Under the pieces are notes generated by a model. That model saw only the letters and a list, made by a program, of their open reading frames with translations. It had not been told where the DNA came from and made no database searches. Below, piece by piece: positions 4,823-24,635 of a DNA stretch of 25,988 nucleotides. Positions within the stretch are counted from its first letter, which is position 1. Every line of letters starts with the position of its first letter. Origin of the DNA: a virus; the IMG/VR virus record IMGVR_UViG_3300015195_000016, positions 1 through 25,988 of that record. The stretch is one strand, 5' to 3'. A program made the translations under genes and the position numbers.

Positions 4823-4823
4823 T

Positions 4824-5258: not shown

Positions 5259-5281
5259 GACGTTCTCCTTTATCTATACTT

Positions 5282-5312
5282 ATGATATGACTCATACTGT
5301 ACAGTATGTCAA
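5282..5312 (-). promoter_or_regulatory. Moron promoter with 16-bp palindromic operator
   Basis: On the minus strand a consensus TTGACA (5312-5307) overlaps the palindrome CATACTGTACAGTATG (5293-5308). The -10 is weaker: CATATC at 17 nt or TATCAT at 19 nt. The TGA stop of the hub gene lies inside the -35 hexamer, so the promoter abuts the upstream gene. The same operator occurs in two promoters near 24 kb. A repressor bound here would block RNA polymerase. Confidence 0.75.
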
Positions 5313-6256
5313 ACCAAATGAGCGTTGAATATCGTGATCCAATCTTGGCCAGTTGTACCTCTGTAATTACCAAGATGTCTGACAGCATCAATCTGAAACT
5401 CACCCTGAAAAACCGAACTATCTCTAAATTGAGAAAAGCTCTGAGCCGTGTTTGTAGCAATAGTCTTAGGCATGTTTACGTACTCACCCACAAGTATATC
5501 AGCCCTCATTATAGTTCTGAACTGAATTTGATTCAAGGATTGCCATACAGGTTGCCCAATTAAATCGTTGAACGACACTTCTTTCGGTGTGGATTTACTA
5601 AACCCATCATATACTGTAAACGTGTTATTACCTATGAGAATTTTAACACCACCATAATCAGCAGACTGATTGGAATATTTAGAAACTTGATTAATGTATC
5701 TGGCAAATTGAGGCACTGTCTGATAAAATCCATATTCACTATTAGCTAATACTAAATTAGGGTTTATATTTATATTTATAGTATAGTTAGGGTAAGCCAC
5801 ACTCAACGTGTTTCTAATAGCGTCTGTTAATGGAGAACCTTTAGCCCAATTAACAATTAAATTTTTTTGATCATTCACAGTTCCCCACCCTGGGATTATC
5901 TGTAAATTTAAATTCATATCAGTACCTTCCCAATTACCAAAAGCTTGCTGAATAACCCCTTGTAAAATTAAACCTCTTTGATCAGGATTAGATAACGGTA
6001 AACCTTTAGACATCCCTGCAAAAACTTGGATATTCATCTTATTTAAATTGAAAGCCGCCCCAATCTCAGTTATAGGTATTCCGTGGATCTTAATGAAAGC
6101 TGCCCCAATTTCTTCAGCTGTTGTAAAAACTGTAATATCAAACTCCACAGATTGTGATGATAGATTATTAGATCCATCTATATTTAAAGTTGTCCATTCT
6201 TGAATAACAGTGTTATTATTGTTAGGGTTCGTTATTATAATATCATAAAATCTCAT
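5309..6256 (-). CDS. Baseplate hub protein (gpD/gp27-like)
   Basis: This 315-aa protein lies where the hub gene is expected, between the plug-like protein and the spike. The N-terminal ~110 residues are beta-rich (VEFDITVFTTAEEIGAAFIK, MNIQVFAGMSKGLPLSNPDQ, LILQGVIQQAFGNWEGTD). The middle segment WAKGSPLTDAIRNTLSVAYP and the later PQFARYINQVSK resemble the hub family, whose members form the trimer between tube and spike. The start overlaps the upstream stop (ATGA). The stop lies in the -35 box of the moron promoter, so the spike gene that normally follows directly is now about 0.7 kb away. Assignment is by position and general pattern. Confidence 0.7.
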   Translation of the reverse strand: MRFYDIIITNPNNNNTVIQEWTTLNIDGSNNLSSQSVEFDITVFTTAEEIGAAFIKIHGIPITEIGAAFNLNKMNIQVFAGMSKGLPLSNPDQRGLILQGVIQQAFGNWEGTDMNLNLQIIPGWGTVNDQKNLIVNWAKGSPLTDAIRNTLSVAYPNYTINININPNLVLANSEYGFYQTVPQFARYINQVSKYSNQSADYGGVKILIGNNTFTVYDGFSKSTPKEVSFNDLIGQPVWQSLNQIQFRTIMRADILVGEYVNMPKTIATNTAQSFSQFRDSSVFQGEFQIDAVRHLGNYRGTTGQDWITIFNAHLV

Positions 6257-6519
6257 GGTATAATCTCAAATTGATTAGTACTAGCTCTATAAATAAGTTT
6301 AGATGTTTGAAAATATCCACCACTTATATCAATATTGTAACCTTGAGGACTGGATATTATGGGTAATGTAAATATTCTAAGTCCATTCACATTAAACATG
6401 CTGATGTAATATCTTTGCCCGAACATATTCCAACTACAAATACAATTATATTTCACATTATCCATAGTTACATTGAATGTGAAATTACTTTTTGGTGAAG
6501 GATTAAAATTAATTAACAT
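6253..6519 (-). CDS. Baseplate plug-like small protein (Pam3 gp18-like)
   Basis: This is an 88-aa all-beta protein between the distal tube protein and the hub. The motif FGQRYYISMFNVNG followed by a hydrophobic strand and GYNIDISGGYF is the pattern I associate with the plug protein of simple contractile baseplates such as cyanophage Pam3 gp18. In that setting it seals the inner tube next to the hub. It overlaps the preceding gene by 11 nt and the hub gene by 4 nt, so its synthesis is tightly coupled to both. The match is by eye on a short sequence, so the family call is tentative; a structural role is likely. Confidence 0.55.
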   Translation of the reverse strand: MLINFNPSPKSNFTFNVTMDNVKYNCICSWNMFGQRYYISMFNVNGLRIFTLPIISSPQGYNIDISGGYFQTSKLIYRASTNQFEIIP

Positions 6520-7231
6520 TTGGATTAATCAACACTGCGTTGGAATTAAGGTTACCTGTAGTAACTGAAGTTGATCCACCTGTTTGATTAGAGGTTAATC
6601 CTTCACCACTCCATTTAATTTCACCATTATTATCAGGTTTAACTACATAACCACTATTAATATTATTCATTAAAGAATTGTAAGCTGCCTGAGCATCTTC
6701 TAATGTTAATAATGGTTTTATAAAATCAAATCTATATTCACTTTGAACTTGTTTTGATTGTCCTGATGTTATATCCACAATATCAGATAAGATACAATTT
6801 GTGTAAGTAAATGCAGGAGTTACTATATTGTACATTCCACCACTAGAATCATGTAAGTCTAATGATCGTTTTAATTGTGTAAGCTTTTGAGATTTAGTTA
6901 TATAACCACCGTTACCTTTAGCTGGGCATATCATTAAAACTGAAACATTTAAAGGGTTGAATACTATAGCATTAGCAGCGGCCTGTTGATTCGCAAAGGC
7001 GTACATTCCAATGCTATTAGATTTTAATTTACTACCAGGTAATACTTTAAACTTTGCAAAATAATCATTTTCTGAGATATTCAAAGTACCGTTAACTAAA
7101 CCGTTATCATAATTTTCTTGCTCCGTTAACGCTATTATAGGTAGCATCTGTGATGGTAAATCAGCAGCAATCCCGCCGATTAATATTATAGGAGTTATCT
7201 CGTATGATAGTGCAAACGATGATCTTGACAT
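6509..7231 (-). CDS. Distal tail tube / baseplate initiator protein
   Basis: This 240-aa protein directly follows the tape measure gene, the place of the Dit-like or gp48/gp53-like protein that caps the tube at the baseplate. The N-terminus (FALSYEITPIILIGGIAADL, then MLPIIALTEQENYDNGLVNG) is beta-rich. The middle contains NVSVLMICPAKGNGGYITKS followed by a helix rich in Lys and Gln, and ALTYTN-like strands (AFTYTNCILSDIVDITSG). The last 50 residues are low complexity, rich in Asn, Ser and Gly. The start is 2 nt after the tape measure stop and has only a weak ribosome site, suggesting coupling. The exact family is not settled. Confidence 0.6.
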   Translation of the reverse strand: MSRSSFALSYEITPIILIGGIAADLPSQMLPIIALTEQENYDNGLVNGTLNISENDYFAKFKVLPGSKLKSNSIGMYAFANQQAAANAIVFNPLNVSVLMICPAKGNGGYITKSQKLTQLKRSLDLHDSSGGMYNIVTPAFTYTNCILSDIVDITSGQSKQVQSEYRFDFIKPLLTLEDAQAAYNSLMNNINSGYVVKPDNNGEIKWSGEGLTSNQTGGSTSVTTGNLNSNAVLINPNVN

Positions 7232-7233
7232 GG

Positions 7234-8751
7234 TTAATGACTCGCTGAACTTAATGCTACCGTCGCGTTACCGCCGGTGTTATTGTTTATCGTAATAGTC
7301 TGATTTTGTGGATTTAATACCTTACTGACTTGTTCAGGAGAGTAACTAGTTTTGTTATTTTCATGCTTAGTTATAGCAGCGACCAATTTGGATAAAATCT
7401 CTTGATTATTTAGATCAAGTTTTTCATTCGCATTAAATCCAGTTCGTTGGCTAACATCTTTTATATAAGCAGTTGTATTATTTTCAGAAGAAGGGGCGTA
7501 TTTATTTATGATTTGAGTTATAGTATTCAAATGGTCTCTGTTTTGATAAAGTTTTAACTGCTTACCTAACGCTGATATACCTGATTCTTTGTTCGGAAAT
7601 ATAGCAAATCCACCAGATTTAGGTAAATTTCCCCACGCTCTTAAATTACCAGGATTATTTCTACCACCAGGATTCGGTTGGTTTGAAAATGAAGTAGGTG
7701 ACCCCCAAGAACCAGAAGCGCCGGATGATTTTGGAGTTTTATCGAAAGCTTTCGAATTACCTGTAATAAAATCCACAGGGTGATCTATTAACTTAGACAT
7801 ACCGGATGTAAAATTGTCTAACGGGTGATCCATTGTTGAATTTAACAACTTAGCTACTGGAAGTAATAAATCGGCGGTTATAACCTTCAAAGACTTAGTA
7901 AATAGGTTAATTTCAATATTCAAATCTTGCCAAGATTTTAATTGAAGATCTGTTTGATCTAGCGCTTTTCTATCTATCTTTTCCTTTTCAACAGCAGCTT
8001 TTATTTCAGCTTCACTGGTGTTTTTTAATAACTGTAGTTCATCAGTGCTGAATCCCATTTCGTGTAATTTAAAAGCCTGAGCAGCTGATTCATTAGCTCC
8101 ATGTTTCATGTAGGTTTCTCTAACTTTAAGAAGAGATTGAGCTAAAAAATCAGCATTATTTAAATTTCTCATCCCACCCAAACCAGCGGCTGATAGTTCA
8201 CCACCTTTAGTAACATCATTTCTAAATTGATTTTGAGCGTGTAAATGTGATCCTACGTCTATAAATTTACCAAAGTTTGTTTCTTGTGACTGCAATTCAC
8301 CAGCACTTATACCAAGAGTTTTAGTTTCTTTTCTGATATTAGCTTCGGATGATGCGACACCTGCCATAACAGCAAATCCTGTACCTAACGCACCTCCTAC
8401 AGCCAAACCAACTGATCCCCATTTACTCATTAAAGCTGTGGTTTCCTTACTAAAATTTAAAATATCTAAATGATTTTTACGAGTTTTACCTGATTGATCT
8501 ACAGTGGTTTTTGATTGTCTGTTGAATTTTATCATTTGATCCACACTAGAATCTAAAGTACCTAATATAGCTTTCGCATCATCACTCAATTTCTTAGTAT
8601 TGTCGGCACCGGCACCTGCACTTTTAGCTACATCCTCCCATTTGGCACCTTGAGCTATCAAATGTTCGTTATATTCATTGAATGAATCTATAAACTTCCT
8701 GTACTGTTCGTCTTTGATTTCAATTTCAATGATGCTTTTTACATCAGCCAT
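7234..8751 (-). CDS. Tape measure protein with C-terminal P5-like peptidoglycan hydrolase domain
   Basis: This 505-aa protein sits between the tail-assembly chaperones and the baseplate genes. The N-terminal ~110 residues are helical and charged, then comes a hydrophobic segment (WGSVGLAVGGALGTGFAVMA, residues ~112-131) that may enter the host membrane. A long helical region follows to about residue 310. Near residue 362 a domain begins with RNNPGNLRAWG, and continues with GFAIFPNKESGISAL, TITQIINKYAPSSENNT and AYIKDVSQRTGF. This is the pattern of the P5-type virion lytic domain known from several phages, used to open peptidoglycan during DNA entry. At 505 residues the tape is short, predicting a modest tail length. 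Its ATG overlaps the chaperone stop (TAATG). Confidence 0.85.
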   Translation of the reverse strand: MADVKSIIEIEIKDEQYRKFIDSFNEYNEHLIAQGAKWEDVAKSAGAGADNTKKLSDDAKAILGTLDSSVDQMIKFNRQSKTTVDQSGKTRKNHLDILNFSKETTALMSKWGSVGLAVGGALGTGFAVMAGVASSEANIRKETKTLGISAGELQSQETNFGKFIDVGSHLHAQNQFRNDVTKGGELSAAGLGGMRNLNNADFLAQSLLKVRETYMKHGANESAAQAFKLHEMGFSTDELQLLKNTSEAEIKAAVEKEKIDRKALDQTDLQLKSWQDLNIEINLFTKSLKVITADLLLPVAKLLNSTMDHPLDNFTSGMSKLIDHPVDFITGNSKAFDKTPKSSGASGSWGSPTSFSNQPNPGGRNNPGNLRAWGNLPKSGGFAIFPNKESGISALGKQLKLYQNRDHLNTITQIINKYAPSSENNTTAYIKDVSQRTGFNANEKLDLNNQEILSKLVAAITKHENNKTSYSPEQVSKVLNPQNQTITINNNTGGNATVALSSASH

Positions 8752-9421
8752 TAAATACCTCTCAACGCCTTAATTATATAACGCTGCTTGAATTCTAACA
8801 CACTGTCGCACTCTAATCCATATTCGCTAAAAAATTCTTTAAAACCGGTAGTACTTAAATATTCTAATATGGAATCGACGATAGTGTCTTTATCTCCGAA
8901 GGTTGTTCCTCGATCAACGTCCGCAAAGAATCTTTGAACTCCGTAGAGTTGTAAGATGTAAGCTGACCCCCCCATAATTCGGTTAATTGTGTCATCGTGG
9001 GGAGTGTTAATTCCTTCTTCGCTACCGATGACACACATGAGAAAAAAACCAACATACCTTTAATTTCGTCAAATTCTTCAGTTGTCAAAACTTTTCGAGA
9101 CAGACAATCCGACAATGTGGATGTAACATAACCGTTAGATGTAGGCATCACTACATTGCATAATCTTACTATTTCATTCATCAAACCGTTGTTAACTGCG
9201 TCTAAAACACCCTCATCTTCAGCTATATCCTTTAAAACTAAATGTGCTATTCTAGGTGCAGTTAGATGTAAGCCTTTGGAGTATATCATACTAAATGTTC
9301 TACTTAAAACCATATAAAATTGATTGAAAATATCCAATGATATTGGAGTGGCATGAACATAAATCACTCCATTATCATCCGGTATTTCCAAAACAAGATT
9401 TAGTTTATTGTTTATACGCAT
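8751..9421 (-). CDS. Tail assembly chaperone, frameshifted long form (G-T type)
   Basis: A -1 ribosomal frameshift at GGGGGGG (8973-8967) would fuse the first ~150 residues of the short chaperone to a second frame that runs to the tape measure start. The junction reads LWGG in frame 0 and MGGSAYILQLYGVQRFF in the -1 frame. The tail of the long form (DTIVDSILEYLSTTGFKEFF and VLEFKQRYIIKAL) is well formed and helical. This is the position and logic of lambda gpG/gpGT: the long form should bind the tape measure and recruit tube subunits. The -1 frame lacks a convincing ribosome site of its own. The predicted fusion is 223 aa. Frameshift efficiency is unknown. Confidence 0.8.
8864..9421 (-). CDS. 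Tail assembly chaperone, short form (G type)
   Basis: The zero-frame product is 185 aa, mostly helical, with the segment YMVLSRTFSMIYSKGLHL and a Cys-containing middle (LCNVVMPTSNGYV). It lies between the tail tube and tape measure genes, where contractile and siphovirus tails carry the chaperone pair. I chose the ATG at 9421, which overlaps the tube gene stop as TAATG; a GTG at 9433 lacks a ribosome site. The frame continues past the slippery run for 34 codons and stops at 8864, so ribosomes that do not slip make this form. It is expected to coat the tape measure with the long form during assembly. Confidence 0.75.
   Translation of the reverse strand: MRINNKLNLVLEIPDDNGVIYVHATPISLDIFNQFYMVLSRTFSMIYSKGLHLTAPRIAHLVLKDIAEDEGVLDAVNNGLMNEIVRLCNVVMPTSNGYVTSTLSDCLSRKVLTTEEFDEIKGMLVFFSCVSSVAKKELTLPTMTQLTELWGGQLTSYNSTEFKDSLRTLIEEQPSEIKTLSSIPY
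8967..8973 (-). other. Programmed -1 frameshift slippery site GGGGGGG
   Basis: In the zero frame the codons are TGG GGG GGT; slipping back one base gives GGG GGG TCA. The run lies late in the first chaperone frame and inside the overlap of the two frames, as expected for a G/GT-type pair. I did not find an obvious pseudoknot by eye. Confidence 0.8.
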
Positions 9422-9861
9422 TATAGATTCCACAATGAATTATTTATGTAGTAAATACCAGTCAGATTTAATACATAACCTGCATTTTTACCACTGAAAT
9501 CTAATGTTTCCACTGATTCAATTGCCACATTAGTAAAATTATAATCGCTCAATGTCGTCGTATCCGTAGTAACGGCGAGATCTCCAATTAATGTGTTATC
9601 TTCCATCTGCGCCTTCCACTGATCGCTCAAAATCTGAGATTTGAGTAGATGGACTTTTACAGAAACTTTAATGTACGGTTCTGGACTTTGAACAACCCCC
9701 GTCAATGTGTCGATGGTTGTTGTAGCGCCGCCACTAAATGATATAGAAATACCTTCTACTGCTAGATTGGCGGCGATTACATTTAATTCTGGGAAATCAA
9801 CAGGAGATACACTACCTCTTAGTCTATTCAATGTTCCTTGTTGTATAAGTGGGTTAGCCAT
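9421..9861 (-). CDS. Tail tube protein
   Basis: This 146-aa beta-rich protein follows the sheath gene, the standard place for the tube subunit. Features include GTLNRLRGSVSPVDFPELNV near the N-terminus, ISISFSGGATTTIDTLTGVV, a long paired strand region (PYIKVSVKVHLLKSQILSDQW) and the C-terminal AGYVLNLTGIYYIN. The RGSV and VHLLKSQ patterns are seen in tube proteins that accompany DUF3383 sheaths (DUF3277 group). A strong AAGGAG site lies about 10 nt before the ATG, consistent with the high output a tube subunit needs. It should form hexameric rings inside the sheath. Confidence 0.8.
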   Translation of the reverse strand: MANPLIQQGTLNRLRGSVSPVDFPELNVIAANLAVEGISISFSGGATTTIDTLTGVVQSPEPYIKVSVKVHLLKSQILSDQWKAQMEDNTLIGDLAVTTDTTTLSDYNFTNVAIESVETLDFSGKNAGYVLNLTGIYYINNSLWNL

Positions 9862-9874
9862 GTCAATTTACTCC

Positions 9875-12550
9875 TTATGCAAACAAGTTAACGTTTAAAT
9901 TAAACACGATATGCTTAAAACCAAGTTGAGGTGTGTAAGCGCACGTCAATCCATTGTATTGACCAATTGCGTAATCACCTGGATTTTCTGATGTATACAC
10001 ACTAAAAGGTTCGGCGTTTACTACAGCGTTTCCTAAATATTTTCCAGCATTTATATTCGCTATGAATACAGCTTGAGGTAATTTAGTTAAAATTACACTA
10101 CCCAGGGTTAAACCGTAACTTACACTATTACCCATTAACTGACCAGCCACTCGTTGTAAATAATCTATACCTGCTTGATTGTAATAAAGAGGAGGTTGTC
10201 TGTTAGATCCATTAATTATAGCATTACTTATAAATAACTGTTCGTTAATCTGCACCCAATCGATTGAGTACCACATGTTTAAAGCATCACCGTTGGCCAT
10301 CACACCATGAAAGTCAATATCAGTCGATATACCACCTTCAGCCCCAGTACCGATATAATTTAGATTAGCAGCTTCAAATGTCGTTTTTTGTGAATTTGTA
10401 ATTGGGTAAGGAGTAACGCCTAAAGCGAAACTGTACGATGATGGTGGTACCTGATTAGTACTAGATGGATTTTGAGAAGCCACCCAGTAAGGCCTGAATG
10501 CGATTGTGAATTCAGTACTAGGTATTCCAGAAGCTTCTATCATTTTATATACGTTTTTTGTTGTGAAACTTGCATATGTAGACAATGTTACAGTCGTGTA
10601 AAAATAGACCTTATCTGTATTCGCATTGTGATTACCAACTAATGTTACATACGTTGATTCTGCATCCCAACCGCGAGGTACTGTGTAAACATAAAACGCA
10701 TTTGGATTATTAGTTAAATATGTGGAGAACGCGGATATCCTAGATGCCGCAGAACCCGCACCTAACTCTAATACGTAAGCTGGGTAATTTGAACCTTGAG
10801 CAAAGTATGTAGTAAACATTGCAGTAACTTCCGTTGCTGGACTACCACTACCTATAATTGCAACAAGATCGGCTAAATCCGTAATTAATGTTGTCACACC
10901 AGCACTTGTCGTTGTTCCACCTTGTGAGATAAAACAAACTTTAGACTGCAATTTATTAGGCGCTGGGGGTCTATTGACAGTCACGTTAACCTGTGTAATT
11001 AAATTCTGTGTCATACCTGACTCCGATGGTGTTGATGCTGTAAATCTGTTGGTGCTGAATGGGGTTGATTGCCCAGTTAATGTGTTAGCTGAAAAACTTG
11101 TAGGATTTAAAAATTTAAAACCCCCAGTAATTGACCATGCTGGCGGAGCTATTAAATTAGCCGGATCGTACAATTGAGTTGCGTCGTACAAATAAAATTG
11201 TATAGATCCAGCACCGTCATCTGCTGAAGGTGAAAATTGTAAAAATCCACGAGTGTTGTCGAATACTGGTGGTAATATACACGCATGTGTTGTTGATACA
11301 GTACTCAACAGAGGTGTCATGTTTAACGGTGAATCTGTAGTATGATCATACCAATACCAGGTTCCATGTGTAGCTGATAAAGAAGTTATAGCAACCCCTC
11401 TCAACCCAGGCGAATTTGTTGTACTTTGATAATCTGAACCAAAATATCCAGCTTCTTGTACTAAATTAAATATTGAATTGAACGAATCCTGTTGACCAAC
11501 CGAACAGGGACTTACCGGTACTACACCACTGAAACTTGAATGAGGCGCTTCATTAACCCATAAAATTGCTTTACCGTAAGCTGCTGTGAACGCCGTTGGT
11601 TCATTACTCAAATTCCAATATGATTGAGTACCGTTAGTCGACGCATGACTAGAAGTAGTTCCGTATTGATCCCAACCAGCAAAATTTAATGTAACATTCG
11701 CTTCGTATTGATTAGCCGCGACATATCTCACGTATGTGGAATTAGATAATAATAATGCGGCTGTAGTAGTTGTACTGCCGTTTGGTACAGTACCAAATCC
11801 TGTCCACGTAATACCATCAGTCGAATACTGCCATGTTCCGGCACATGCTATTATCCCGCTAGTATCCACAAAACTTGTAGCGGTAACACCAGTTACAGCA
11901 ATCCCGCCGTATGCTGGCGAATTAGGGTCGTTATAATTCACTTTAGTTAAAACATCACTTATTAAAATAGCGGGTGATGTGGAATTACGTGCAACGCCGA
12001 ACTCGAACGCTTGAGCATACGGTGAGCCTAACGTTGGTTGATTATGAAGTGATGTTACTACATTTATTGTTAGATTATGCAAAAATAACAAATCTCCTAT
12101 ATGATCATTTGAGTTTGGCGATGATATTGCTGTACCGACAACTCCACCATTAGAATATCCTGTATTATTAGGTATAGCTGGATCATGATCTAGTGCACAT
12201 AAATTTAAACTTGCTATTTCTACAGCCGCTGTGGGTGTATACCTAAACCATGTCACCAAACCGCTGATTAATTCTTTTATTAAGCATGAAACTTTAGGTG
12301 ACCCAACACTACCGCCAGAAAATTGATAAGAATATACGTCAAACCAAGTTGCACCACTATCAGTGCTAATTGACCATTGACCTACACCAACAAGATTATA
12401 AAAATACAACCCCCTATACTGATTTGTAGGATCAGTAGCTTTGTAATATTGCAAATAATTCAAAATTGCAGTACTAGTTATTATTAAAGGGCTGCTAGAA
12501 ACTAATATGTTATAAGTATCTATATTATTATTTATTGTAGGTTGGGTCAT
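9875..12550 (-). CDS. Tail sheath (DUF3383) with N-terminal adhesin-repeat extension
   Basis: This 891-aa protein joins two unlike parts. Residues 513-891 read as a DUF3383-type contractile sheath: VNVTVNRPPAPNKLQSKVCF, FTTYFAQGSNYPAYVLELGAG, ANLNYIGTGAEGG and WYSIDWVQINEQLFISNAI. Residues 1-512 contain three degenerate repeats of the cadherin/adhesin type, each with W-x-YSTD-GxxW, then RYxP or RYVAANQY, then an A-x-D element: W59/RY103/ALDHD119, W240/RY275/GWDQ292 and W398/LQFSP437/YLYD453. A typical sheath of this family would be near 380 aa. The ATG at 12550 has no clear ribosome site and lies 3 nt after the preceding stop. The ATG of codon 513 has GGAG 6 nt upstream, so a short sheath may be made as well. 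The repeats would probably face outward from the tail. Confidence 0.85.
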   Translation of the reverse strand: MTQPTINNNIDTYNILVSSSPLIITSTAILNYLQYYKATDPTNQYRGLYFYNLVGVGQWSISTDSGATWFDVYSYQFSGGSVGSPKVSCLIKELISGLVTWFRYTPTAAVEIASLNLCALDHDPAIPNNTGYSNGGVVGTAISSPNSNDHIGDLLFLHNLTINVVTSLHNQPTLGSPYAQAFEFGVARNSTSPAILISDVLTKVNYNDPNSPAYGGIAVTGVTATSFVDTSGIIACAGTWQYSTDGITWTGFGTVPNGSTTTTAALLLSNSTYVRYVAANQYEANVTLNFAGWDQYGTTSSHASTNGTQSYWNLSNEPTAFTAAYGKAILWVNEAPHSSFSGVVPVSPCSVGQQDSFNSIFNLVQEAGYFGSDYQSTTNSPGLRGVAITSLSATHGTWYWYDHTTDSPLNMTPLLSTVSTTHACILPPVFDNTRGFLQFSPSADDGAGSIQFYLYDATQLYDPANLIAPPAWSITGGFKFLNPTSFSANTLTGQSTPFSTNRFTASTPSESGMTQNLITQVNVTVNRPPAPNKLQSKVCFISQGGTTTSAGVTTLITDLADLVAIIGSGSPATEVTAMFTTYFAQGSNYPAYVLELGAGSAASRISAFSTYLTNNPNAFYVYTVPRGWDAESTYVTLVGNHNANTDKVYFYTTVTLSTYASFTTKNVYKMIEASGIPSTEFTIAFRPYWVASQNPSSTNQVPPSSYSFALGVTPYPITNSQKTTFEAANLNYIGTGAEGGISTDIDFHGVMANGDALNMWYSIDWVQINEQLFISNAIINGSNRQPPLYYNQAGIDYLQRVAGQLMGNSVSYGLTLGSVILTKLPQAVFIANINAGKYLGNAVVNAEPFSVYTSENPGDYAIGQYNGLTCAYTPQLGFKHIVFNLNVNLFA
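11012..11024 (-). promoter_or_regulatory. Internal ribosome binding site and start inside the sheath gene
   Basis: GGAG (11024-11021), a 6-nt spacer and an in-frame ATG (11014-11012) lie at codon 513. This is exactly where homologous sheaths begin (MTQNLITQVNVTV). It is a better initiation site than the upstream ATG at 12550. It predicts a 379-aa short sheath in addition to the 891-aa form. Confidence 0.6.
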
Positions 12551-12553
12551 ATT

Positions 12554-12919: not shown

Positions 12920-12921
12920 TT

Positions 12922-15420: not shown

Positions 15421-15440
15421 GATGCATACACTTTCAGAAA

Positions 15441-15471: not shown

Positions 15472-15488
15472 CAAAATAAAATAGGGGT

Positions 15489-16514: not shown

Positions 16515-16524
16515 TTTACACCCC

Positions 16525-17361: not shown

Positions 17362-18614
17362 TATTTTTCACCTTCTGATATTTTACCCTTGAAAGACGGC
17401 TGACGAAATTGATTGGTAAAACCGGAAATATCACCGATGAATTCCGTCATCTCAACTCTACCTTGTTTTTTAGTAACTTCGCGCAATTGCCCCCTCGGTA
17501 AAGTTGATATAATACGACGCGGGTCGTTAGCCGCAAGTTGTGCGTCATTATATACTTGATCTTCAAAATGTTTAAATGCAACATTATCTGTAATTTTAGA
17601 AAAGTCGACGTTTTTGAATCTTTCACTAAATTGCTGAAGAGGTTTTAAAACTCGATTGCGGTAAGCATGAGCTTTTTCCCCACTCATGGGGCGTGGTGCG
17701 TGCTTACCGTGTAGTTGAAGCACACTATCAGCGCGTGCTTGAGCATCTGCCATTGCTGCTGATTCAGTTTCATCTTCTTCAGCATCAGCTTTAACTTCAG
17801 GTTTCGGTTCAGCATCAGCTTTAACTTCAGGTTTCGGTTCAGCATCAGCTTTAACCTTTTCATCGGCAGCATCCATACGAGCATTTAATGCATCCATACG
17901 TGATCCAATTTTACCGATAGCATCCATAATAGCATTGAGAGCTGTAGGATCAGCATCGTTTTTATGGCGAGGATAATCCTCGCCAGTATTATCTTTATTA
18001 CCGTTATCGGCATCAGCTTTAACTTCGTCAGTCATTTTATCAACCCCTTCAATTATTTGTGAATCCAGTCTAACTCCGCTAGGCTCTCCGAGTTTATCCC
18101 AAACGCCTCGCTCACATATAGCTAAATGATCTATTAATGGGGCTACACCCTCTATTAATAGATGTTTACCATCACTTAATTCTACAACGGTGTTTTCAGA
18201 TTGTCTATTAAATAATACACCAGGTGATGTAGATAATTGATTTTCCGTCATTTGTTTAACTGATAAATCGTCGTATATTTTAGCTATTCCCCAAACCTCA
18301 TCATCTTTAATATACGGTTTAAATATAGTACCTATTATGCGATTTGAAAAATCTTTAGAATCCATCACACCTTCTTCTGGGTGATTCCACAAAACAGGTA
18401 AACCGTTACAACGTTCTAGAAATTCATCATTTAGATAATTATCGGGATGCCTATGCACAAACTCTTCTAAACCAACTCTATACGCAGCACCGGTACCAGT
18501 AATGCGCAAATCAAATAATGTAACATTATTAAAAACTTGAGGTGAGGATAATTCCCCAGATATCATAGATTTTGCAATGTCTAACTCTGTAACTAAAACA
18601 TCATCTTGAGGCAT
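17361..18614 (-). CDS. DUF2213 prohead protease / scaffold fusion
   Basis: This 417-aa protein has a DUF2213-type N-terminal half (to about residue 200). Its motifs are EEFVHRHPDNYLNDEFLERC, GLPVLWNHPEEGVMDSKDF, IIGTIFKPYIKDDEVWGIAK and LIDHLAICERGVW. The C-terminal half is helical, acidic and scaffold-like, with MDAIGKIGSRMDALNARMDA, then 2.5 copies of a 10-residue repeat (VKADAEPKPE), and a terminal region (KNVDFSKITDNVAFKHFE). In the family this protein is thought to cleave and scaffold the prohead. It starts at 18614 behind AAGGAG with a 10-nt spacer. I could not assign catalytic residues with confidence. Confidence 0.8.
   Translation of the reverse strand: MPQDDVLVTELDIAKSMISGELSSPQVFNNVTLFDLRITGTGAAYRVGLEEFVHRHPDNYLNDEFLERCNGLPVLWNHPEEGVMDSKDFSNRIIGTIFKPYIKDDEVWGIAKIYDDLSVKQMTENQLSTSPGVLFNRQSENTVVELSDGKHLLIEGVAPLIDHLAICERGVWDKLGEPSGVRLDSQIIEGVDKMTDEVKADADNGNKDNTGEDYPRHKNDADPTALNAIMDAIGKIGSRMDALNARMDAADEKVKADAEPKPEVKADAEPKPEVKADAEEDETESAAMADAQARADSVLQLHGKHAPRPMSGEKAHAYRNRVLKPLQQFSERFKNVDFSKITDNVAFKHFEDQVYNDAQLAANDPRRIISTLPRGQLREVTKKQGRVEMTEFIGDISGFTNQFRQPSFKGKISEGEK
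17781..17856 (-). repeat. 30-bp tandem repeat (2.5 copies) in the scaffold gene
   Basis: Positions 17781-17810 are identical to 17811-17840, and 17841-17856 begins a third copy. The unit encodes VKADAEPKPE. Perfect identity points to recent slippage. It lies in the acidic linker of the scaffold, where length variation is likely tolerated. Confidence 0.9.
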
Positions 18615-18837
18615 GATTCAAAAACTCCTTTAAATCTTTTAGATTAATATTCATACGCATTTGTTTGTTGTAAGTTAAAATTGCGAATTCACCTTTCGGA
18701 AATGAACCAAATATTTCACAATATCTATCGAAAGCGATATGTAAAATTGCTTTATTATCTACACAAAATTGTATATCATCTAAAGTTTCTGAAATACCTA
18801 AACCTTCTTCGGAAATGATAATTAATTTATGTATCAT
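18601..18837 (-). CDS. Small hypothetical protein in the head cluster
   Basis: This 78-aa protein is not recognised. It has a short strand start (HKLIIISEEG), an acidic helix (GISETLDDIQFCVDNKAIL) and a basic end (NKQMRMNINLKDLKEFLNHA). It is locked into the operon: its ATG overlaps the head morphogenesis stop (ATGA) and its end overlaps the protease/scaffold start by 14 nt. The downstream gene's ribosome site lies within its last codons. That packing supports a real gene. A regulator of head assembly or a morphogenesis helper is possible but unproven. Confidence 0.55.
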   Translation of the reverse strand: MIHKLIIISEEGLGISETLDDIQFCVDNKAILHIAFDRYCEIFGSFPKGEFAILTYNKQMRMNINLKDLKEFLNHASR

Positions 18838-19580
18838 TTTTTCATCGCATCCTTACCTTTAGCTGTTAGCATATCATCTGGTAAATCTTGTATCGCGTAC
18901 AAATAAGTTCCGTAACATCTACAAAATGGTTCTTTTGAAAATCCCGGTGACTCATCGTAATAACCATGTTCACCGAGTTTCATTAAACCTGCGTTTTTAG
19001 CCCAATTACCTCGTATTGTAAATATTTTACCATCAATATCTTTATGGTCTTCACGGTAATTATAGCCCATTTCTTGCCAGTGGCTATTCCAAATTACAGC
19101 GATCGCCCCACCGTTTTCGGCAATAATGTTGTTTATGTTTGCTGTTAGTTTGTGGGATTGATCGATAATTACTCTACGCTCTACAAAAGGTAGTTGTTTC
19201 AAAGATTTTTTAACTTCTTCGCGCATTTCAGGATCAGGTTTACTATCGCTAGTTATCCAACCGCTTAATCTTCTGATCGTCTTATCTATAGCCTCTTCAC
19301 GATTAAGTTTAATCAAGTTTGCGCTGGCAAATATTCGTCTATTTAATTCTTGCCGCAATTGAGGTTCGATACGTTCAACCCCAACAGCCATTCTAATAAT
19401 GCTGTTAAATTTACCTCTAAATGTCCTATCTAACAGTAATTGCAGCTTATCTTCTGGCATCATCTGCTTAATTGCAGCATCTCGCACTAACTTAATCCAC
19501 AATTGTAATTGTTGTTCTGTAGTGTAACCTTGAGCGCTCGCTTCATTTATCACTTTATTTATTACACTGTAATAACTCAT
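18834..19580 (-). CDS. Head morphogenesis protein (Mu gpF-like minor head protein)
   Basis: This 248-aa protein follows the portal gene, the usual place of Mu F-like proteins. The C-terminal domain carries the characteristic pattern YNYREDHKDIDGKIFTIRGN and then SPGFSKEPFCRCYGTYLYAI; the CRC near residue 225 is typical of these proteins. The first ~110 residues are helical. Mu gpF-type proteins are minor head parts attached to the portal and may enter the host with the DNA. The start overlaps the portal stop by 4 nt. Assignment from motif plus position is good. Confidence 0.8.
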   Translation of the reverse strand: MSYYSVINKVINEASAQGYTTEQQLQLWIKLVRDAAIKQMMPEDKLQLLLDRTFRGKFNSIIRMAVGVERIEPQLRQELNRRIFASANLIKLNREEAIDKTIRRLSGWITSDSKPDPEMREEVKKSLKQLPFVERRVIIDQSHKLTANINNIIAENGGAIAVIWNSHWQEMGYNYREDHKDIDGKIFTIRGNWAKNAGLMKLGEHGYYDESPGFSKEPFCRCYGTYLYAIQDLPDDMLTAKGKDAMKK

Positions 19581-20992
19581 AATTTAAATCCAGCTTCAGC
19601 GACTTTTTGCTCTTGATCAGCGTGCTTTTCCAAATAATCGCGTAACACTTCTATATCAATGTTTAGCGGATTTTTAAAAAGTAACTGTTGTTCATTAAAA
19701 TTATCAATCCCCCACTGAATTAGATCAGCTTTGTTTGTGGGATCTATTTGAGCACCTAACGTATCTACCAAAGCAATAATGGCTTTAAGTTTTACTTCCT
19801 CTGTTTTTATTTTATCAGCATCAGATTCTATTAAAAAATTTGGCCACTGGGCTTTGAATGAATTCTTCCAACCGATGAAAGCTTCTTTAAAATCCACATC
19901 CTTATACTCATCAGGATATTCATTTTTTACAGCTTCAAAAAAATCAGGAGTCCATGCCTTATACATTACGATATTGTCAAACCAATCAAAAACTGGTTGT
20001 AAATCCTTTTGCTTATTCAAAATGTATCTCGCTACATTTTTAGCATCTTCGGTACCTTCACCAAATCCTTCAGCGAAAGTTTCGCTATTTAATATTTTAG
20101 CCGGAGCTTGAATAGCCAATGCTATATTTTCTAATGCATTTTTTCTCGCTGTAATCATTGCCTTATCAATATTTTGTAGATCCAAACTCTCAATCGCCTC
20201 ATCAATATCAATATTTACTGTATTACCAACCTCTGCCTGATTGAGTAAATTACGTTTAAAACTCATCGCGCTCATCATGATATTATCAATAAATGATCCG
20301 GGAGCTTTTATTTTAGCTACAAGTACCCCTGCCTTTTTTGTAACTAGATCATCGGTGATCATAGTTTGTATATAGGTTTTAAGTGGAAATAATGCTCGTT
20401 GATAGGCCGAACGCCCTACAAATCCATATGCACTTTCTGTAAATGATATGTAAATAGGATCTTCATTCAGTAAAACACAACTTCTCGACGGATGAAACTT
20501 TTGACCGTTCACTGCAACAATTTGAGGTTTTTGAAAATCACTAGATAATGGTAATTGATTGAGCACTAAAGAGCCTGAAGTGTTCAAAGGATCGAACACA
20601 TTAAAATATAAATCATTTTCAGCTAGAGCTTCAAGAGGTACTGCGGTTTCTGTAGCAACCCCAGTCACGATGTAAACTATTGTGGATATTCCGTAAATTG
20701 CAGATGTTCGAGCTAAGTTTTTGATGTGGGAATCACACTTCAGTTTATCCCAAGTTTGCATAAATTGTTCGATAATCATTTCGGCAGCTGTAGATTTTAC
20801 AGATATTTCCCGTGGTTTACTCATAGCCATATTTACAGGATACTCTACGATTTTAGCCCCTAGCGGGTGATACAAATAAATCTGTTTGCATAGCTCATAA
20901 CTCGCCGATGAGCCTGGTGCAATATCCTCTGACATTAATAACTCAGTTAAATGAGTGCCGATCGTAGAGCCGTTAAAAAGTACTGATCCCAT
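19577..20992 (-). CDS. Portal protein (DUF1073)
   Basis: This 471-aa protein sits between TerL and the Mu F-like gene. Segments typical of DUF1073 portals are CKQIYLYHPLGAKIVEYPVN near the N-terminus, KFHPSRSCVLLNEDPIYISF, YGFVGRSAYQRALFPLKTYI, and NIALAIQAPAKILNSETFAE followed by GFGEGTEDAKNVARYI. The C-terminal part is helical and acidic. The portal ring is the DNA gate that binds terminase on one side and the adaptor on the other. The ATG overlaps the TerL stop as TAATG. No truncation is apparent. Confidence 0.85.
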   Translation of the reverse strand: MGSVLFNGSTIGTHLTELLMSEDIAPGSSASYELCKQIYLYHPLGAKIVEYPVNMAMSKPREISVKSTAAEMIIEQFMQTWDKLKCDSHIKNLARTSAIYGISTIVYIVTGVATETAVPLEALAENDLYFNVFDPLNTSGSLVLNQLPLSSDFQKPQIVAVNGQKFHPSRSCVLLNEDPIYISFTESAYGFVGRSAYQRALFPLKTYIQTMITDDLVTKKAGVLVAKIKAPGSFIDNIMMSAMSFKRNLLNQAEVGNTVNIDIDEAIESLDLQNIDKAMITARKNALENIALAIQAPAKILNSETFAEGFGEGTEDAKNVARYILNKQKDLQPVFDWFDNIVMYKAWTPDFFEAVKNEYPDEYKDVDFKEAFIGWKNSFKAQWPNFLIESDADKIKTEEVKLKAIIALVDTLGAQIDPTNKADLIQWGIDNFNEQQLLFKNPLNIDIEVLRDYLEKHADQEQKVAEAGFKL

Positions 20993-22284
20993 TAAAAACC
21001 GCCTTTATTACCTAAAGTTAAAGCCACAGCATATGTAAAGCAATCTAAAAGATCATCCTCCCGTTTATTAGCATTCTCATCTGATATTTTAAACTCAGAT
21101 AGCTGCGAAAGCAAATGGTTGCGATTACGTTCTTTGAAATTTACTAATCTGTTATACGCCACATCACACAATTTTACCTGCTCGCGATGCACGTAACCGC
21201 TAATACTTATAGCTCGCTCGTCTTTACCGACAGCCGTAAGTTTTGAGTTAATAGCATGTACTTTTAAACCTCTGCGTTTGGCTTGTTGCAATAAAATCAT
21301 GCCGCTAGATTTATCCTCGATCAATACACCAGGGCTAGGTAATCGAGCGTTGCATAATTTACAATAGTGATCAATTTGCTCATAAACAGTAATCAAAAAT
21401 ACCTCAAGCAAACTACCCTCAATTTGCACTATATTGTAATCTAAAATATATAGAGGTTGCCCTCTATTAAAAGCTACATATATCACACCCGTACCATCAT
21501 TAAGATTGCCCGTTTTTGTAGCAGTATCCATAACTGCTACAACATAATCAACTCGATCAGGTATCGCCACCGGCTGCTCGTTAACCAAAAGTTTTTTCAT
21601 ATCAAAAAATCTTACACCTCCCCAATCAACAAATTCAGCCAGATATTCTTGCTGAAAAACTAGAGGATGATTTTCGCGCTCCAAAGCATCCAAAGCCTCT
21701 TGAGATAGATAAGGGTTCGTATGCGTAGGTAAATGAATCTCTTTAAATCCAAGCGATTTATCATTACAAATTTGATAAAAAAAATCATTTTCATTAACGC
21801 CTAAAGGAGTACCTGTAATAATACAAAAACCATTATAATCTAATAATGTTGGGCGGATAGCTTGATTCCACACATCCATCATATTTTCTTTGCACAATCC
21901 TGCCTCATCGATACCTACACCGTGATATTTTCGTGATCTTCCGCAATGCTCATTCTCAGTGCTCCAAAAATCCATTCTACCTGCATGCCTGGTTAGTATA
22001 ACTCCATCAGTTTTGGAGCTGCTTTCGATATCATCATTTAAAATGCTTTTACAATCTCGATAAAACTCACTCATATATTTGTATTGTGGAGCAAAATACC
22101 CAAAATATTTACCGCGCGCGGTAGTATTGCAACCGATAGCTTTCAGCAACTCTGATTTTCCCCATCGCCTTCCGCACCTAACGACTACAAATCTATTTTT
22201 TACATGCAAACCATAAGCGCGTAATTGACCCTTATGTAAAATTGGTAATTTTACGTGCGTGCGCTTATCATGATTAGTTGCCAT
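20992..22284 (-). CDS. terL: Terminase large subunit (TerL)
   Basis: This 430-aa protein is the packaging motor. A P-loop of the W-type is seen at residues 37-45 (CGRRWGKSE). A Walker B follows (HGVGIDEAGLC), and then the coupling motif IITGTPLG. The C-terminal nuclease half contains VVAVMDTATKTGNLNDG, PGVLIEDKSSG and DDLLDCFTYAVAL, the expected acidic residues. I start at ATG 22284, overlapping TerS by 11 nt; a longer frame needs a TTG at 22323 deep inside TerS. The TerS gene lies directly upstream. The type of DNA end (cos or pac) cannot be told from the sequence alone. Confidence 0.9.
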   Translation of the reverse strand: MATNHDKRTHVKLPILHKGQLRAYGLHVKNRFVVVRCGRRWGKSELLKAIGCNTTARGKYFGYFAPQYKYMSEFYRDCKSILNDDIESSSKTDGVILTRHAGRMDFWSTENEHCGRSRKYHGVGIDEAGLCKENMMDVWNQAIRPTLLDYNGFCIITGTPLGVNENDFFYQICNDKSLGFKEIHLPTHTNPYLSQEALDALERENHPLVFQQEYLAEFVDWGGVRFFDMKKLLVNEQPVAIPDRVDYVVAVMDTATKTGNLNDGTGVIYVAFNRGQPLYILDYNIVQIEGSLLEVFLITVYEQIDHYCKLCNARLPSPGVLIEDKSSGMILLQQAKRRGLKVHAINSKLTAVGKDERAISISGYVHREQVKLCDVAYNRLVNFKERNRNHLLSQLSEFKISDENANKREDDLLDCFTYAVALTLGNKGGF

Positions 22285-22807
22285 TATCGTACTCAGGTTG
22301 TTGCAATGCGTTGTCGATGACAAGTGAATCCTCTAGTTTGTGAGTTTCTTCACGCTCTTTAAGATGTTCATCAAGATCTTTTAAAGCCTTGAGTTTATCC
22401 CAAAGAGTTACTTCGAGATTACCGTCTTTATTAATTTTTATCGAAGAAACAGCAACTTGCATTTCCTCCGGTATCTCGGATAGATTAGCACTTTTTATTA
22501 AAGCGAGATTACTGCTCGCTATTTTATGCCGCTCGAATTGTATTTGAGCCCGCGTCATTATCTTCGAATAGATCTCTTCGTCTTCTATCTTCCGTCTTTT
22601 TGCGCGTTCTTCGGCTATCGTTTTCTTTACTAACGGGCTTAAAAGCAATTGTGTACCTCTTACTTGAGGATTTTTAGTTTTGTATCCAGCAAGGATTACA
22701 GATTCGGATATCATACCTGTTTCGAGATAAAATCCAATAAATAATAATTGTTTTTCATTTAAAGTCGCTCTCGATCCTGGATTTTTTACACCAACACGCG
22801 ATGACAT
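22274..22807 (-). CDS. terS: Terminase small subunit (TerS)
   Basis: This 177-aa helical protein directly precedes TerL. The N-terminal segment NEKQLLFIGFYLETGMISES followed by VILAGYKTKNPQVRG forms a helix-turn-helix, the DNA-binding part of TerS. The centre is a charged helix (VKKTIAEERAKRRKIEDEEI) likely to form the oligomer. The C-terminal ~40 residues are acidic and should contact TerL. The start is ATG 22807 behind AGGTG with a 6-nt spacer. It should recognise the packaging start on phage DNA. Confidence 0.8.
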   Translation of the reverse strand: MSSRVGVKNPGSRATLNEKQLLFIGFYLETGMISESVILAGYKTKNPQVRGTQLLLSPLVKKTIAEERAKRRKIEDEEIYSKIMTRAQIQFERHKIASSNLALIKSANLSEIPEEMQVAVSSIKINKDGNLEVTLWDKLKALKDLDEHLKEREETHKLEDSLVIDNALQQPEYDNGN

Positions 22808-22877
22808 TTTAACACCTAAAATTTTCCGGTTATCATAATTTTAATTAAATAACAAAAACCTATTACCGCAAATATTA

Positions 22878-23075
22878 TTAATGAATCCACAATTTAATCC
22901 TTTCGACGATAATCGCGCTGGTGGCTAAAGTTGCGAGTGATATTAAAAATGATATTAGTTTAACCCAATTTTTAGCAGCGTTGCGAGTATTCATTTCTTC
23001 TATGAGTGCTGAAACTATTAAATCGCGGCACTCTTTATCATCGATGACTTGTTTGGCTAAATCTTTATAATTGAT
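22878..23075 (-). CDS. Small one-helix membrane protein of the lysis cassette (holin candidate)
   Basis: This 65-aa protein begins MINYKDLAKQVIDDKECRDL and has one hydrophobic segment near the C-terminus (LISFLISLATLATSAIIVER) with a short basic end. The ATG at 23075 lies inside the last codons of the endolysin gene; a longer frame to 23135 has no ribosome site and adds an unlikely hydrophobic start. Overlap with a GH19 endolysin suggests a lysis role such as holin, antiholin or spanin, though single-helix proteins are hard to assign. The fairly long N-terminal soluble part (35 residues) argues for caution. Confidence 0.5.
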   Translation of the reverse strand: MNYKDLAKQVIDDKECRDLIVSALIEEMNTRNAAKNWVKLISFLISLATLATSAIIVERIKLWIH

Positions 23076-23634
23076 CATGATAAAAATCAAACTTAGTTTT
23101 AAAAACATCATAATTAAGCAAAGCTGGATTAACAATACCTCTGCATTTTTTTAGATCCAGAGCTAATGCTGCATTTTTGAATCGATCCTCATTGTAAATA
23201 AATAAAAACCAATAAGCGCTATTTACAGCGTGAGTCACATCACTGCTCAATAAATCTGGATCTAAAGATGGATTACCGCACCATTTAAAATATTGCAAAT
23301 ATAAAAATCTACCTGTAATTTGAATCAAACCTCTCCCTCTGTATTTCCAACCGTCTCCAGAAAAATAATCCCCGTTACCCATTTTTTGAGAATAAACTCT
23401 GTTGGCTATCAAAACTGGATGTCTAGCGTCATGCTCTGCGTCGTCGGGTTTGTTTTTATAAATCGACGGGAATGTGCTCATCAAAGCTGCGGCGGAATAA
23501 TTTAAATTTTCATACAAAAATCTACCGCCGCCACTTTCTAAATCTGCATTAGCGGCAGCGGCGGCTATAACTTTTTTATCCAAACCTTTAGATTGTAAAA
23601 AAGTTATCAACAATTTAATATTTCTATTAATCAT
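23065..23634 (-). CDS. Endolysin, GH19 chitinase/lysozyme-like
   Basis: This 189-aa enzyme should cut peptidoglycan glycan strands at lysis. GH19 signatures are clear: AAAANADLESGGG with the putative catalytic Glu at residue 33, FLYENLNYSAAALMSTF, ARHPVLIANRVYSQKMGNGD, and SGDGWKYRGRGLIQITGR at about residues 92-109. No signal peptide is seen, so it probably needs a holin for export. I start at ATG 23634, which overlaps the end of the upstream small gene; a longer frame to 23688 would lie wholly in that gene. The gene is followed by a small membrane protein, forming a lysis cassette just before terminase. Confidence 0.9.
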   Translation of the reverse strand: MINRNIKLLITFLQSKGLDKKVIAAAAANADLESGGGRFLYENLNYSAAALMSTFPSIYKNKPDDAEHDARHPVLIANRVYSQKMGNGDYFSGDGWKYRGRGLIQITGRFLYLQYFKWCGNPSLDPDLLSSDVTHAVNSAYWFLFIYNEDRFKNAALALDLKKCRGIVNPALLNYDVFKTKFDFYHDQL

Positions 23635-23872
23635 TTTTTTGAGTAGGTAGTGAAAATAAATGTAAAAATGCATCAGCAAGACTTGCATCTTTAGCTACAG
23701 CGGAATTGATATTATCCAGATGTTGAGCAGTTTCGGTAGCTCCAGCGGCTTTAGCTACAGTAGAGGCACTATTGAGGGTTAAAGTCACGGCTTGTTGAGC
23801 CGCACTTAACGTTGTTTGAGCTTTTGCAAAAAATGCAAAACCTTCTGTGATTAATGCTAATAAATTTCCCAC
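23627..23872 (-). CDS. Small hypothetical protein leading the lysis cassette
   Basis: This is an 81-aa Ala-rich amphipathic protein: VGNLLALITEGFAFFAKAQT, then SAASTVAKA-like helices (TLNSASTVAKAAGATETAQH) and SLADAFLHLFSL. I use a GTG start at 23872 because AGGAG lies 8 nt upstream; the longer frame back to 23947 begins in the AT-rich promoter region. It is the first gene of the leftward operon in this window and overlaps the endolysin. It has no clear membrane segment, though residues 3-15 are hydrophobic. It could be a holin-like or regulatory protein; I cannot decide. Confidence 0.5.
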   Translation of the reverse strand: MGNLLALITEGFAFFAKAQTTLSAAQQAVTLTLNSASTVAKAAGATETAQHLDNINSAVAKDASLADAFLHLFSLPTQKND

Positions 23873-23921
23873 GATTTGATCTCCTAAAATTACACAATAA
23901 TGATTACACAAAATATTTATT

Positions 23922-23979
23922 AAAAATATACATATAAACCCTTGCATACTGTACAGTATGTGTCATACTTAAATTGTAG
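23922..23979 (+). repeat. Promoter cassette repeat, copy 1
   Basis: About 58 bp (23922-23979) recur at 24357-24414 with about five differences. The shared block runs from an AT-rich tract (AAAATATAC) through AAACCCTTGCATACTG to ATACTTAAATTGTA, so it covers the upstream element, -35, operator and -10. This is a duplicated regulatory cassette. Confidence 0.9.
23942..23969 (+). promoter_or_regulatory. Plus-strand promoter with palindromic operator, copy 1
   Basis: TTGCAT (23942-23947) is followed by 16 nt and CATACT (23964-23969). The palindrome CATACTGTACAGTATG (23945-23960) fills the spacer, and a further AGTAT-N5-ATACT half-site pair reaches the -10. A bound dimer would block polymerase. It would drive the structured leader and the 57-aa gene, and it diverges from the late operon. 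Confidence 0.75.
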
Positions 23980-24109
23980 ATAGAGAGACCGTGGTCTCGG
24001 AGGTTCACCCTCCAAACCAGCGCGGGATTCAGGGATGACTCAAGTGGCCGAGGGCGGGTTGAGAAAATCTGAATATCATAGTTACTCAATTCTAGCCCGC
24101 GAGGGTTAG
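23975..24109 (+). ncRNA. GC-rich structured leader or small RNA candidate
   Basis: Between promoter copy 1 and the 57-aa gene lies a stretch of ~170 nt with much higher GC than its surroundings and no convincing ORF. Visible hairpins are GAGACC/GGTCTC, GGAGG/CCTCC and CTAGCCC-GCGA-GGGTTAG (24092-24109), the last with a GNRA-type loop. TTGAG (24059-24063) can pair with CTCAA at 24039-24043 or with CTCAA at 24085-24089, and GCGGG (24054-24058) can pair with CCCGC (24096-24100). These are mutually exclusive folds, as in attenuators or sensors. The only frame, a 24-codon ATG at 24035, has no usable ribosome site. It may be a regulatory leader or the remains of a small gene. Confidence 0.4.
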
Positions 24110-24126
24110 CGTGGATTAATTAAAAC
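24080..24126 (+). repeat. 46-bp cassette-end repeat with hairpin, copy 1
   Basis: This block, starting AGTTACTCAATTCTAGCCCG and ending GTGGATTAATTAAAA, is repeated at 24314-24359 with two differences. The first 13 bases recur once more at 24615-24628. The two differences keep the CTAGCCC hairpin paired in RNA (G-U in this copy, G-C in the other). Confidence 0.9.
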
Positions 24127-24141
24127 CTAAAGGGGATTATC

Positions 24142-24315
24142 ATGATTACATTATCAATAATCGCAGCGGTAGTGGCTATTTTTACAACATACAAAGTTAT
24201 TCTCACTAACCCCACACGTATAGTACGAGTAATCAATATTGAGCTTAAAACTCCACAAAAAAACATTAGCCCAGAATTATGGGATGTTGAAGTTTATCAT
24301 AGAGGTTCAAAATAG
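24142..24315 (+). CDS. 57-aa small membrane protein
   Basis: This short gene starts at ATG 24142 behind AAAGGGGA with a 6-nt spacer, a strong ribosome site. Its N-terminus is a membrane segment or uncleaved signal anchor (LSIIAAVVAIFTTYKVILT), followed by a soluble tail (NIELKTPQKNISPELWDVEV) ending YHRGSK. It is not recognised. The stop TAG is the first part of the cassette-end repeat. Phage early modules often carry such short membrane proteins, for example for exclusion or host interference, but nothing here proves a role. It is probably transcribed from promoter copy 1 through the structured leader. Confidence 0.65.
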   Translation: MITLSIIAAVVAIFTTYKVILTNPTRIVRVINIELKTPQKNISPELWDVEVYHRGSK

Positions 24316-24359
24316 TTACTCAATTCTAGCCCGCGCGGGCTAGCGTGGATTAATTAAAA
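24314..24359 (+). repeat. 46-bp cassette-end repeat with perfect palindrome, copy 2
   Basis: Here the hairpin is the perfect palindrome CTAGCCCGCGCGGGCTAG. It is followed directly by promoter cassette copy 2, so end-repeat and promoter form one joint unit. There is no T-run, so it does not look like a simple terminator. Confidence 0.9.
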
Positions 24360-24414
24360 ATATACGTATAAACCCTTGCATACTGTACAGTATGGGGTAT
24401 ACTTAAATTGTAAC
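24357..24414 (+). repeat. Promoter cassette repeat, copy 2
   Basis: This is the second copy of the 58-bp promoter block. Differences from copy 1 cluster just after the palindrome, where GGGT replaces TGTC and improves the -10 to TATACT. Confidence 0.9.
24376..24403 (+). promoter_or_regulatory. Plus-strand promoter with palindromic operator, copy 2
   Basis: TTGCAT (24376-24381), 16 nt and TATACT (24398-24403), with the operator CATACTGTACAGTATG at 24379-24394. It lies 26 nt before the start of the 62-aa gene. This is the strongest -10 of the three operator promoters. Confidence 0.8.
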
Positions 24415-24617: not shown

Positions 24618-24635
24618 TTACTCAATTCCAGATAA

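What the first reader, a model, noticed from the sequence alone, without database searches (positions are those of the whole stretch)
5293..24394. One 16-bp operator shared by three promoters 19 kb apart
Seen: CATACTGTACAGTATG occurs perfectly at 5293-5308, 23945-23960 and 24379-24394, and each copy sits between a -35 and a -10. A 16-bp palindrome is not expected three times by chance, least of all only in promoters. Inference: a phage repressor (outside the window or unrecognised) controls a regulon made of the moron in the baseplate cluster and two short-gene cassettes, so these genes respond to the lysogeny or induction state.
Basis: partly seen in the sequence, partly recalled or inferred. 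Interest (0 to 1): 0.75.

Follow-up and report, generated by a model that had tools for sequence, protein, structure and literature searches.

The report
Shared repressor-type operator in phage promoters
A perfect 16-letter palindrome sits inside three promoters of accessory genes in an environmental phage, which points to one regulator controlling them together; the regulator's gene is not in the sequence at hand, and this is a known style of phage regulation rather than a new kind.

Summary
CATACTGTACAGTATG occurs exactly at 5293-5308, 23945-23960 and 24379-24394. No other site in the window lies within 3 mismatches, and shuffled windows almost never hold one. All three copies lie in the 3.5% of the window outside genes, at the same register from a -35-like hexamer, with an expected centre near -23 (steric-repressor position). 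Two caveats: copies 2 and 3 lie in a 64-nt duplicated segment, so there are two independent contexts, not three; and their -35 is weak (CTTGCA). The sharpest evidence is copy 1 against 2 and 3: upstream identity at background (6/25), 16/16 in the palindrome.

The window is about half of a temperate-type myophage genome related to Rac-SA53, PdC23, Chronis and QDWS. Copy 1 drives a 682-bp insert between two tail genes that abut in all six relatives examined. Copies 2 and 3 drive short-gene cassettes and a possible small RNA. No recognisable repressor is in the window; relatives encode theirs in the missing half.

Best reading: operator of a phage-encoded dimeric repressor that silences accessory cassettes, working like SPbeta's SPBRE/MrpR. 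That it is the immunity repressor is inference. Xer/dif, LexA and simple duplication were tested and disfavoured.

The parts
5293..5308 (-). Operator copy 1, CATACTGTACAGTATG, directly after the stop codon of the baseplate-hub gene
5282..5312 (-). Promoter of copy 1: TTGACA (5312-5307), 19-nt spacer, TATCAT (5287-5282)
   Evidence: 9th best of 51,896 positions
4627..5308 (-). Inserted segment (moron) between baseplate-hub and baseplate genes that abut or overlap in six relatives
4824..5258 (-). Moron ORF 1, 144 aa, no relatives found; starts 35 nt after operator copy 1 with AAGGAG before its ATG
4616..4822 (-). Moron ORF 2, 68 aa, no relatives found
23945..23960 (+). Operator copy 2
23941..23969 (+). 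Promoter of copy 2: CTTGCA (23941-23946), 17 nt, CATACT (23964-23969)
23979..24110 (+). G+C-rich leader or possible small RNA without ORF, ending in stem CTAGCCCGCGAGGGTTAG
   Evidence: fold z -1.98; no Rfam match at gathering score
24142..24315 (+). Short ORF of cassette 1, 57 aa, hydrophobic N-terminus (likely membrane protein)
24379..24394 (+). Operator copy 3
24375..24403 (+). Promoter of copy 3: CTTGCA (24375-24380), 17 nt, TATACT (24398-24403)
24429..24617 (+). Short ORF of cassette 2, 62 aa, no relatives found; starts 35 nt after operator copy 3 with AAGGAG before its ATG
23915..24412 (+). Span of the duplicated promoter block: 23915-23978 and 24349-24412, 92% identical over 64 nt
   Evidence: family D3

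Best explanation
The 16-bp palindrome is the binding site (operator) of a dimeric repressor encoded by the phage in the half of its genome missing from this contig. Bound between -35 and -10 (about -31 to -16), it blocks RNA polymerase at three promoters that each head an accessory unit: a two-gene moron in the tail operon and two short-gene cassettes near the lysis module, one with a structured leader or small RNA. When the repressor is lost, the three units are switched on together, ahead of or apart from the late operon. Shown: the sequence, its positions, the promoter register, and its sharp conservation against diverged flanks. Inferred: that a protein binds, that it represses, and that it is phage-encoded.
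For: Three exact copies, no near misses, far above chance. All outside genes, in 3.5% of positions. Same register to the -35-like hexamer in all three; copy 1 is a near-consensus promoter. Copy 1 against copies 2 and 3: 6/25 identity upstream, 16/16 inside, which common descent of the whole segment does not explain. Two of three sites are followed by AAGGAG and an ATG 35 nt away. The phage belongs to a group with temperate members carrying CI/DicA-type repressors. The 16-mer is absent from 32 related viral records at up to 2 mismatches and, exactly, from 398 genomes of one phylum, as expected of a phage-specific rather than a widespread host operator. SPbeta gives a precedent: a 15-bp repeated element in about ten promoters, bound by the master repressor MrpR (PMC10516654).
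Against: No repressor gene is recognisable in the window. Two of three -35 hexamers are poor, which would also fit an activator. Copies 2 and 3 are duplicates. No relative has a repeated palindrome of this kind, so there is no comparative support for conservation. The divergent promoters at 24618-24988, where a replication or immunity switch might lie, have no copy.
Confidence: 0.62

Rival explanations
1. A host transcription factor, not a phage one, binds the site, so the morons answer to a host signal (SOS, metabolite, quorum).
For: Many host dimeric regulators use 16-bp palindromes, and accessory phage genes can be wired to host control (own knowledge); the half-site ends in CTGT/ACAG as in LexA boxes.
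Against: LexA of gamma/betaproteobacteria needs CTGT-N8-ACAG (own knowledge); here the spacing is zero, and no LexA-like box scores better than 15/20 anywhere in the window, none at these sites. The exact 16-mer is absent from 398 genomes of the phylum of one relative's host. The phage's own host is unknown, so other regulators stay open.
Confidence: 0.18
2. An activator binds the site and switches the three promoters on (an early or late phage activator, or a MerR-type protein that twists an over-long spacer).
For: Copies 2 and 3 have weak -35 hexamers; copy 1 has a 19-nt spacer with good hexamers, as MerR-type promoters do.
Against: The site centre near -23 is not where ordinary activators act; MerR-type promoters need 19-20 nt spacers throughout (own knowledge), while copies 2 and 3 fit 17; no activator gene seen.
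Confidence: 0.12
3. The palindromes are Xer/dif-like recombination sites, and the cassettes are dif-module-like mobile units.
For: The E. coli dif core CATAATGTATATTATG (recalled sequence) matches at 13 of 16; cassette ends are repeated.
Against: dif and pdif sites are 28 bp with two 11-bp arms and a variable centre (PMC6449649). Here the centre is invariant and the arms diverge just outside the 16 bp. On arm identity the sites score 10-13 of 22, and 120 to 2,833 places in the window do as well or better.
Confidence: 0.03
4. No function: one promoter segment was copied by duplication, and the third copy is coincidence or a decayed duplicate.
For: Copies 2 and 3 are a 64-nt, 92% duplicate.
Against: Copy 1 shares nothing above background upstream, yet all 16 bases of a perfect palindrome, again in a promoter; chance is negligible.
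Confidence: 0.05

Closest known systems
SPBRE element and MrpR, master repressor of Bacillus phage SPbeta (PMC10516654)
   Same: One short element repeated in about ten scattered phage promoters of mostly unknown genes, bound by the lysogeny repressor
   Different: SPBRE is a 15-bp motif bound by a tyrosine-recombinase-fold protein; here a perfect 16-bp palindrome, three copies, no known binder
CI/C2-type operators of lambdoid phages
   Same: Dyad of similar length lying between -35 and -10 (own knowledge)
   Different: Lambdoid operators cluster at the immunity region and vary between copies; these are single, identical and next to accessory genes
Stoperators of cluster A mycobacteriophages (PMC9283540, PMC6550527)
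   Same: Repressor sites distributed across a phage genome
   Different: Stoperators are asymmetric and stop elongation at sites across the genome; these are palindromic and only in promoters
Rac-SA53, Actinobacillus pPE4, Pantoea PdC23, Klebsiella Chronis, Yersinia 21.09 and Shewanella QDWS phages
   Same: Same head, baseplate and terminase genes in the same order; temperate members with CI/DicA-type repressors; two (Rac-SA53, pPE4) carry an inserted antirepressor elsewhere in the baseplate cluster
   Different: None carries this operator, these cassettes or the insert at this junction

Membership tests
Dispersed phage-repressor operator (SPBRE-like regulon) | Same short motif in several phage promoters, outside genes | tested here: met
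Dispersed phage-repressor operator (SPBRE-like regulon) | Motif overlaps or lies between promoter hexamers | tested here: met
   the -35 is weak in two of three
Dispersed phage-repressor operator (SPBRE-like regulon) | Cognate repressor encoded by the same phage | tested here: inconclusive
   none recognisable in this half genome; the other half is not available
Dispersed phage-repressor operator (SPBRE-like regulon) | Repressor binds the motif and silences the promoter | not testable with these tools
   needs binding and reporter assays
Xer dif/pdif site | 28 bp: conserved 11-bp XerC and XerD arms around a variable 6-bp centre | tested here: not met
   arm identity 10-13 of 22, equalled or beaten by 120-2,833 places; centre invariant, arms diverged
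LexA (SOS) box of gamma/betaproteobacteria | CTGT-N8-ACAG | tested here: not met
   half-sites abut (CTGTACAG); one search finds no close LexA-type box at these sites
Rac-SA53/PdC23/Chronis-type temperate myophage | Collinear terminase, portal, capsid, sheath and baseplate genes at about 40-50% protein identity | tested here: met

The most novel reading that the evidence does not exclude
The operator belongs not to the immunity repressor but to a separate regulator dedicated to accessory cassettes, and moves with them as part of a promoter-operator module, so that unrelated morons in one phage form a regulon with its own signal, independent of the lysis-lysogeny switch.
Probability: 0.17. Interest if true: 0.55.

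Novelty: new member of a known kind. Interest (0 to 1): 0.36.

Why it matters
Accessory phage genes are often treated as independently expressed passengers. A shared operator would show that unrelated morons in distant places are wired into one circuit and would predict when they act. It also gives a concrete handle, a 16-bp exact motif, for recognising the missing half of this phage and its repressor in metagenomes.

Tried and rejected
Exact 16-mer in IMG/VR: 18 contigs, one copy each, none in a promoter-like context on inspection and many of them the same sequence in related contigs; taken as chance. The inner 14-mer: at least 118 contigs, none with a second exact copy; one contig (L227) has TTGACATACTGTACAGTAT upstream of a -10-like sequence but a single site and unrelated genes, taken as coincidence. 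Relatives: no variant within 2 mismatches in 32 viral records, no comparable repeated palindromes in six reference phages or in about 160 loci around the terminase. Homologues of the cassette and moron proteins: none in the phage records or in IMG/VR pattern scans, likewise none convincing for the 304-aa orphan, and no significant family match in Pfam, PHROGs, NCBIfam or PADLOC. The repeated cassette end was not found elsewhere in IMG/VR. AlphaFold of the 304-aa orphan without an alignment gave pLDDT 35, unusable. The operator text is in no held paper. Rfam hits at 24740-24860 are microRNA models fitting a long AT-rich hairpin below gathering score, dismissed.

Full report
Observation. CATACTGTACAGTATG is present exactly at 5293-5308, 23945-23960 and 24379-24394 and at no other place within three mismatches; shuffles give 0.13 such matches on average. 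The only other perfect 16-bp palindrome of the window occurs once (24327), and in 300 simulated windows none held any such palindrome twice. Only 3.5% of 16-mer positions lie wholly outside the genes as I called them, and all three copies do.

How independent the copies are. Copies 2 and 3 are part of a 64-nt direct duplicate with 92% identity (D3), accompanied by a second duplicated block that ends each cassette (D6, 96% over 48 nt). They are one context. Copy 1 is different: oriented along its transcript it shares 6 of 25 upstream bases with either other copy (the level of chance), then all 16 bases of the palindrome, then little except a -10-like ATA, and a ribosome site in the case of copy 3. 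Identity that begins and ends with the palindrome is what a binding site leaves when the rest has diverged or never was shared.

Promoters. With an approximate sigma-70 matrix the best promoter over each site starts its -35 hexamer 4 nt before the palindrome in all three cases: TTGACA-19-TATCAT for copy 1 (9th of 51,896 positions), CTTGCA-17-CATACT for copy 2 and CTTGCA-17-TATACT for copy 3 (top 0.6% and 0.3%). The matrix uses consensus frequencies recalled from the literature, so the ranks are guides only; the plain consensus scan listed none of the three. With the usual start 7 nt after the -10, the palindrome spans about -31 to -16. This is where operators of dimeric repressors such as lambda CI lie (own knowledge). 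Copies 1 and 3 are each followed by AAGGAG and an ATG 35 nt downstream of the palindrome.

What the genes are. The record is a 26-kb viral contig with a late operon on the minus strand (terminases, portal, capsid, sheath, tape-measure/lysozyme, hub, baseplate J, fibres). Terminase and baseplate J place it with Shewanella QDWS, Rac-SA53, pPE4, PdC23, Chronis and Yersinia phages at about 40-49% identity, several of which have integrase and CI/DicA-type repressor genes. Closer environmental relatives exist in IMG/VR, up to 55% in the terminase. In all six reference relatives the hub gene and the next baseplate gene abut or overlap; in the window 682 bp carrying operator copy 1, a 144-aa and a 68-aa ORF lie between them. 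This is a moron by position. Two relatives carry an antirepressor insert elsewhere in the same baseplate cluster. The cassettes at 23.9-24.6 kb are on the plus strand, against the late operon: operator promoter, a G+C-rich stretch without ORF that folds somewhat better than shuffles (z -1.98), a stem, a 57-aa ORF, the same cassette end, the second operator promoter and a 62-aa ORF. None of these proteins has a relative in the libraries searched.

The regulator. No ORF of the window matches a DNA-binding regulator; the 304-aa orphan at 24989-25903 stays unidentified and its model was unusable, so it remains formally possible as the binder. Both contig ends lie in tandem repeats, which suggests an assembly break, and the regulatory half is missing. 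The site is absent from related phages and from 398 genomes of one phylum. Phage immunity operators change quickly between relatives, so absence fits, but it also means there is no comparative proof.

Rivals. Xer/dif: the core resembles dif at 13 of 16, but arm identity is no better than at hundreds of places in the window and the centre, not the arms, is what is conserved. LexA: half-site spacing is wrong and no good box is present. MerR-type activator: only copy 1 has the long spacer. Host repressor: cannot be excluded since the host is unknown. Pure duplication: does not account for copy 1.

The moron lies in the same direction as the late operon and would be read with it in the lytic cycle anyway. 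A separate repressed promoter therefore matters only while late genes are off: in early infection or on loss of repression if the binder is the immunity repressor, or in the lysogen if it is another regulator. The evidence does not separate these.

Verdict. A real, shared, repressor-type operator; a dispersed phage operator regulon like SPbeta's SPBRE/MrpR in kind, with the binding protein still to be found.

Noticed in passing
5049-5077 and 5189-5217: A 29-bp perfect inverted repeat 111 nt apart inside moron ORF 1, with a third copy of its CGTGCTAAAACG core at 5107-5118; the transcript folds far better than shuffles (z -4.75). It may be a small mobile hairpin element or a structured RNA rather than ordinary coding sequence.
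   Followed up: partly
24078-24125 and 24312-24359, stub at 24615: Cassettes end in the same block (TAGTTACTCAATTC plus a GC-rich stem); the stop codon of each short ORF is part of it. The two stems differ by changes that keep pairing through G-U.
   Followed up: partly
24625-24664 and 24943-24982: A 40-nt inverted repeat (90%) whose arms each carry a TTGAGT-17-TATAAT promoter pointing outward, with a long hairpin at 24747-24858 and three TTTACACTCAA-like motifs between or within them: possible replication or control region.
   Followed up: no
24989-25903: 304-aa orphan protein behind a near-consensus promoter (TTTACA-17-TATAAT); no significant match in any library.
   Followed up: partly
1-214 and 25931-25988: Both contig ends are tandem repeats, which probably caused the assembly to stop.
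   Followed up: no
L227:6040-6090: Unrelated viral contig with TTGACATACTGTACAGTAT upstream of a -10-like sequence: a single similar promoter-palindrome, probably coincidence.
   Followed up: partly
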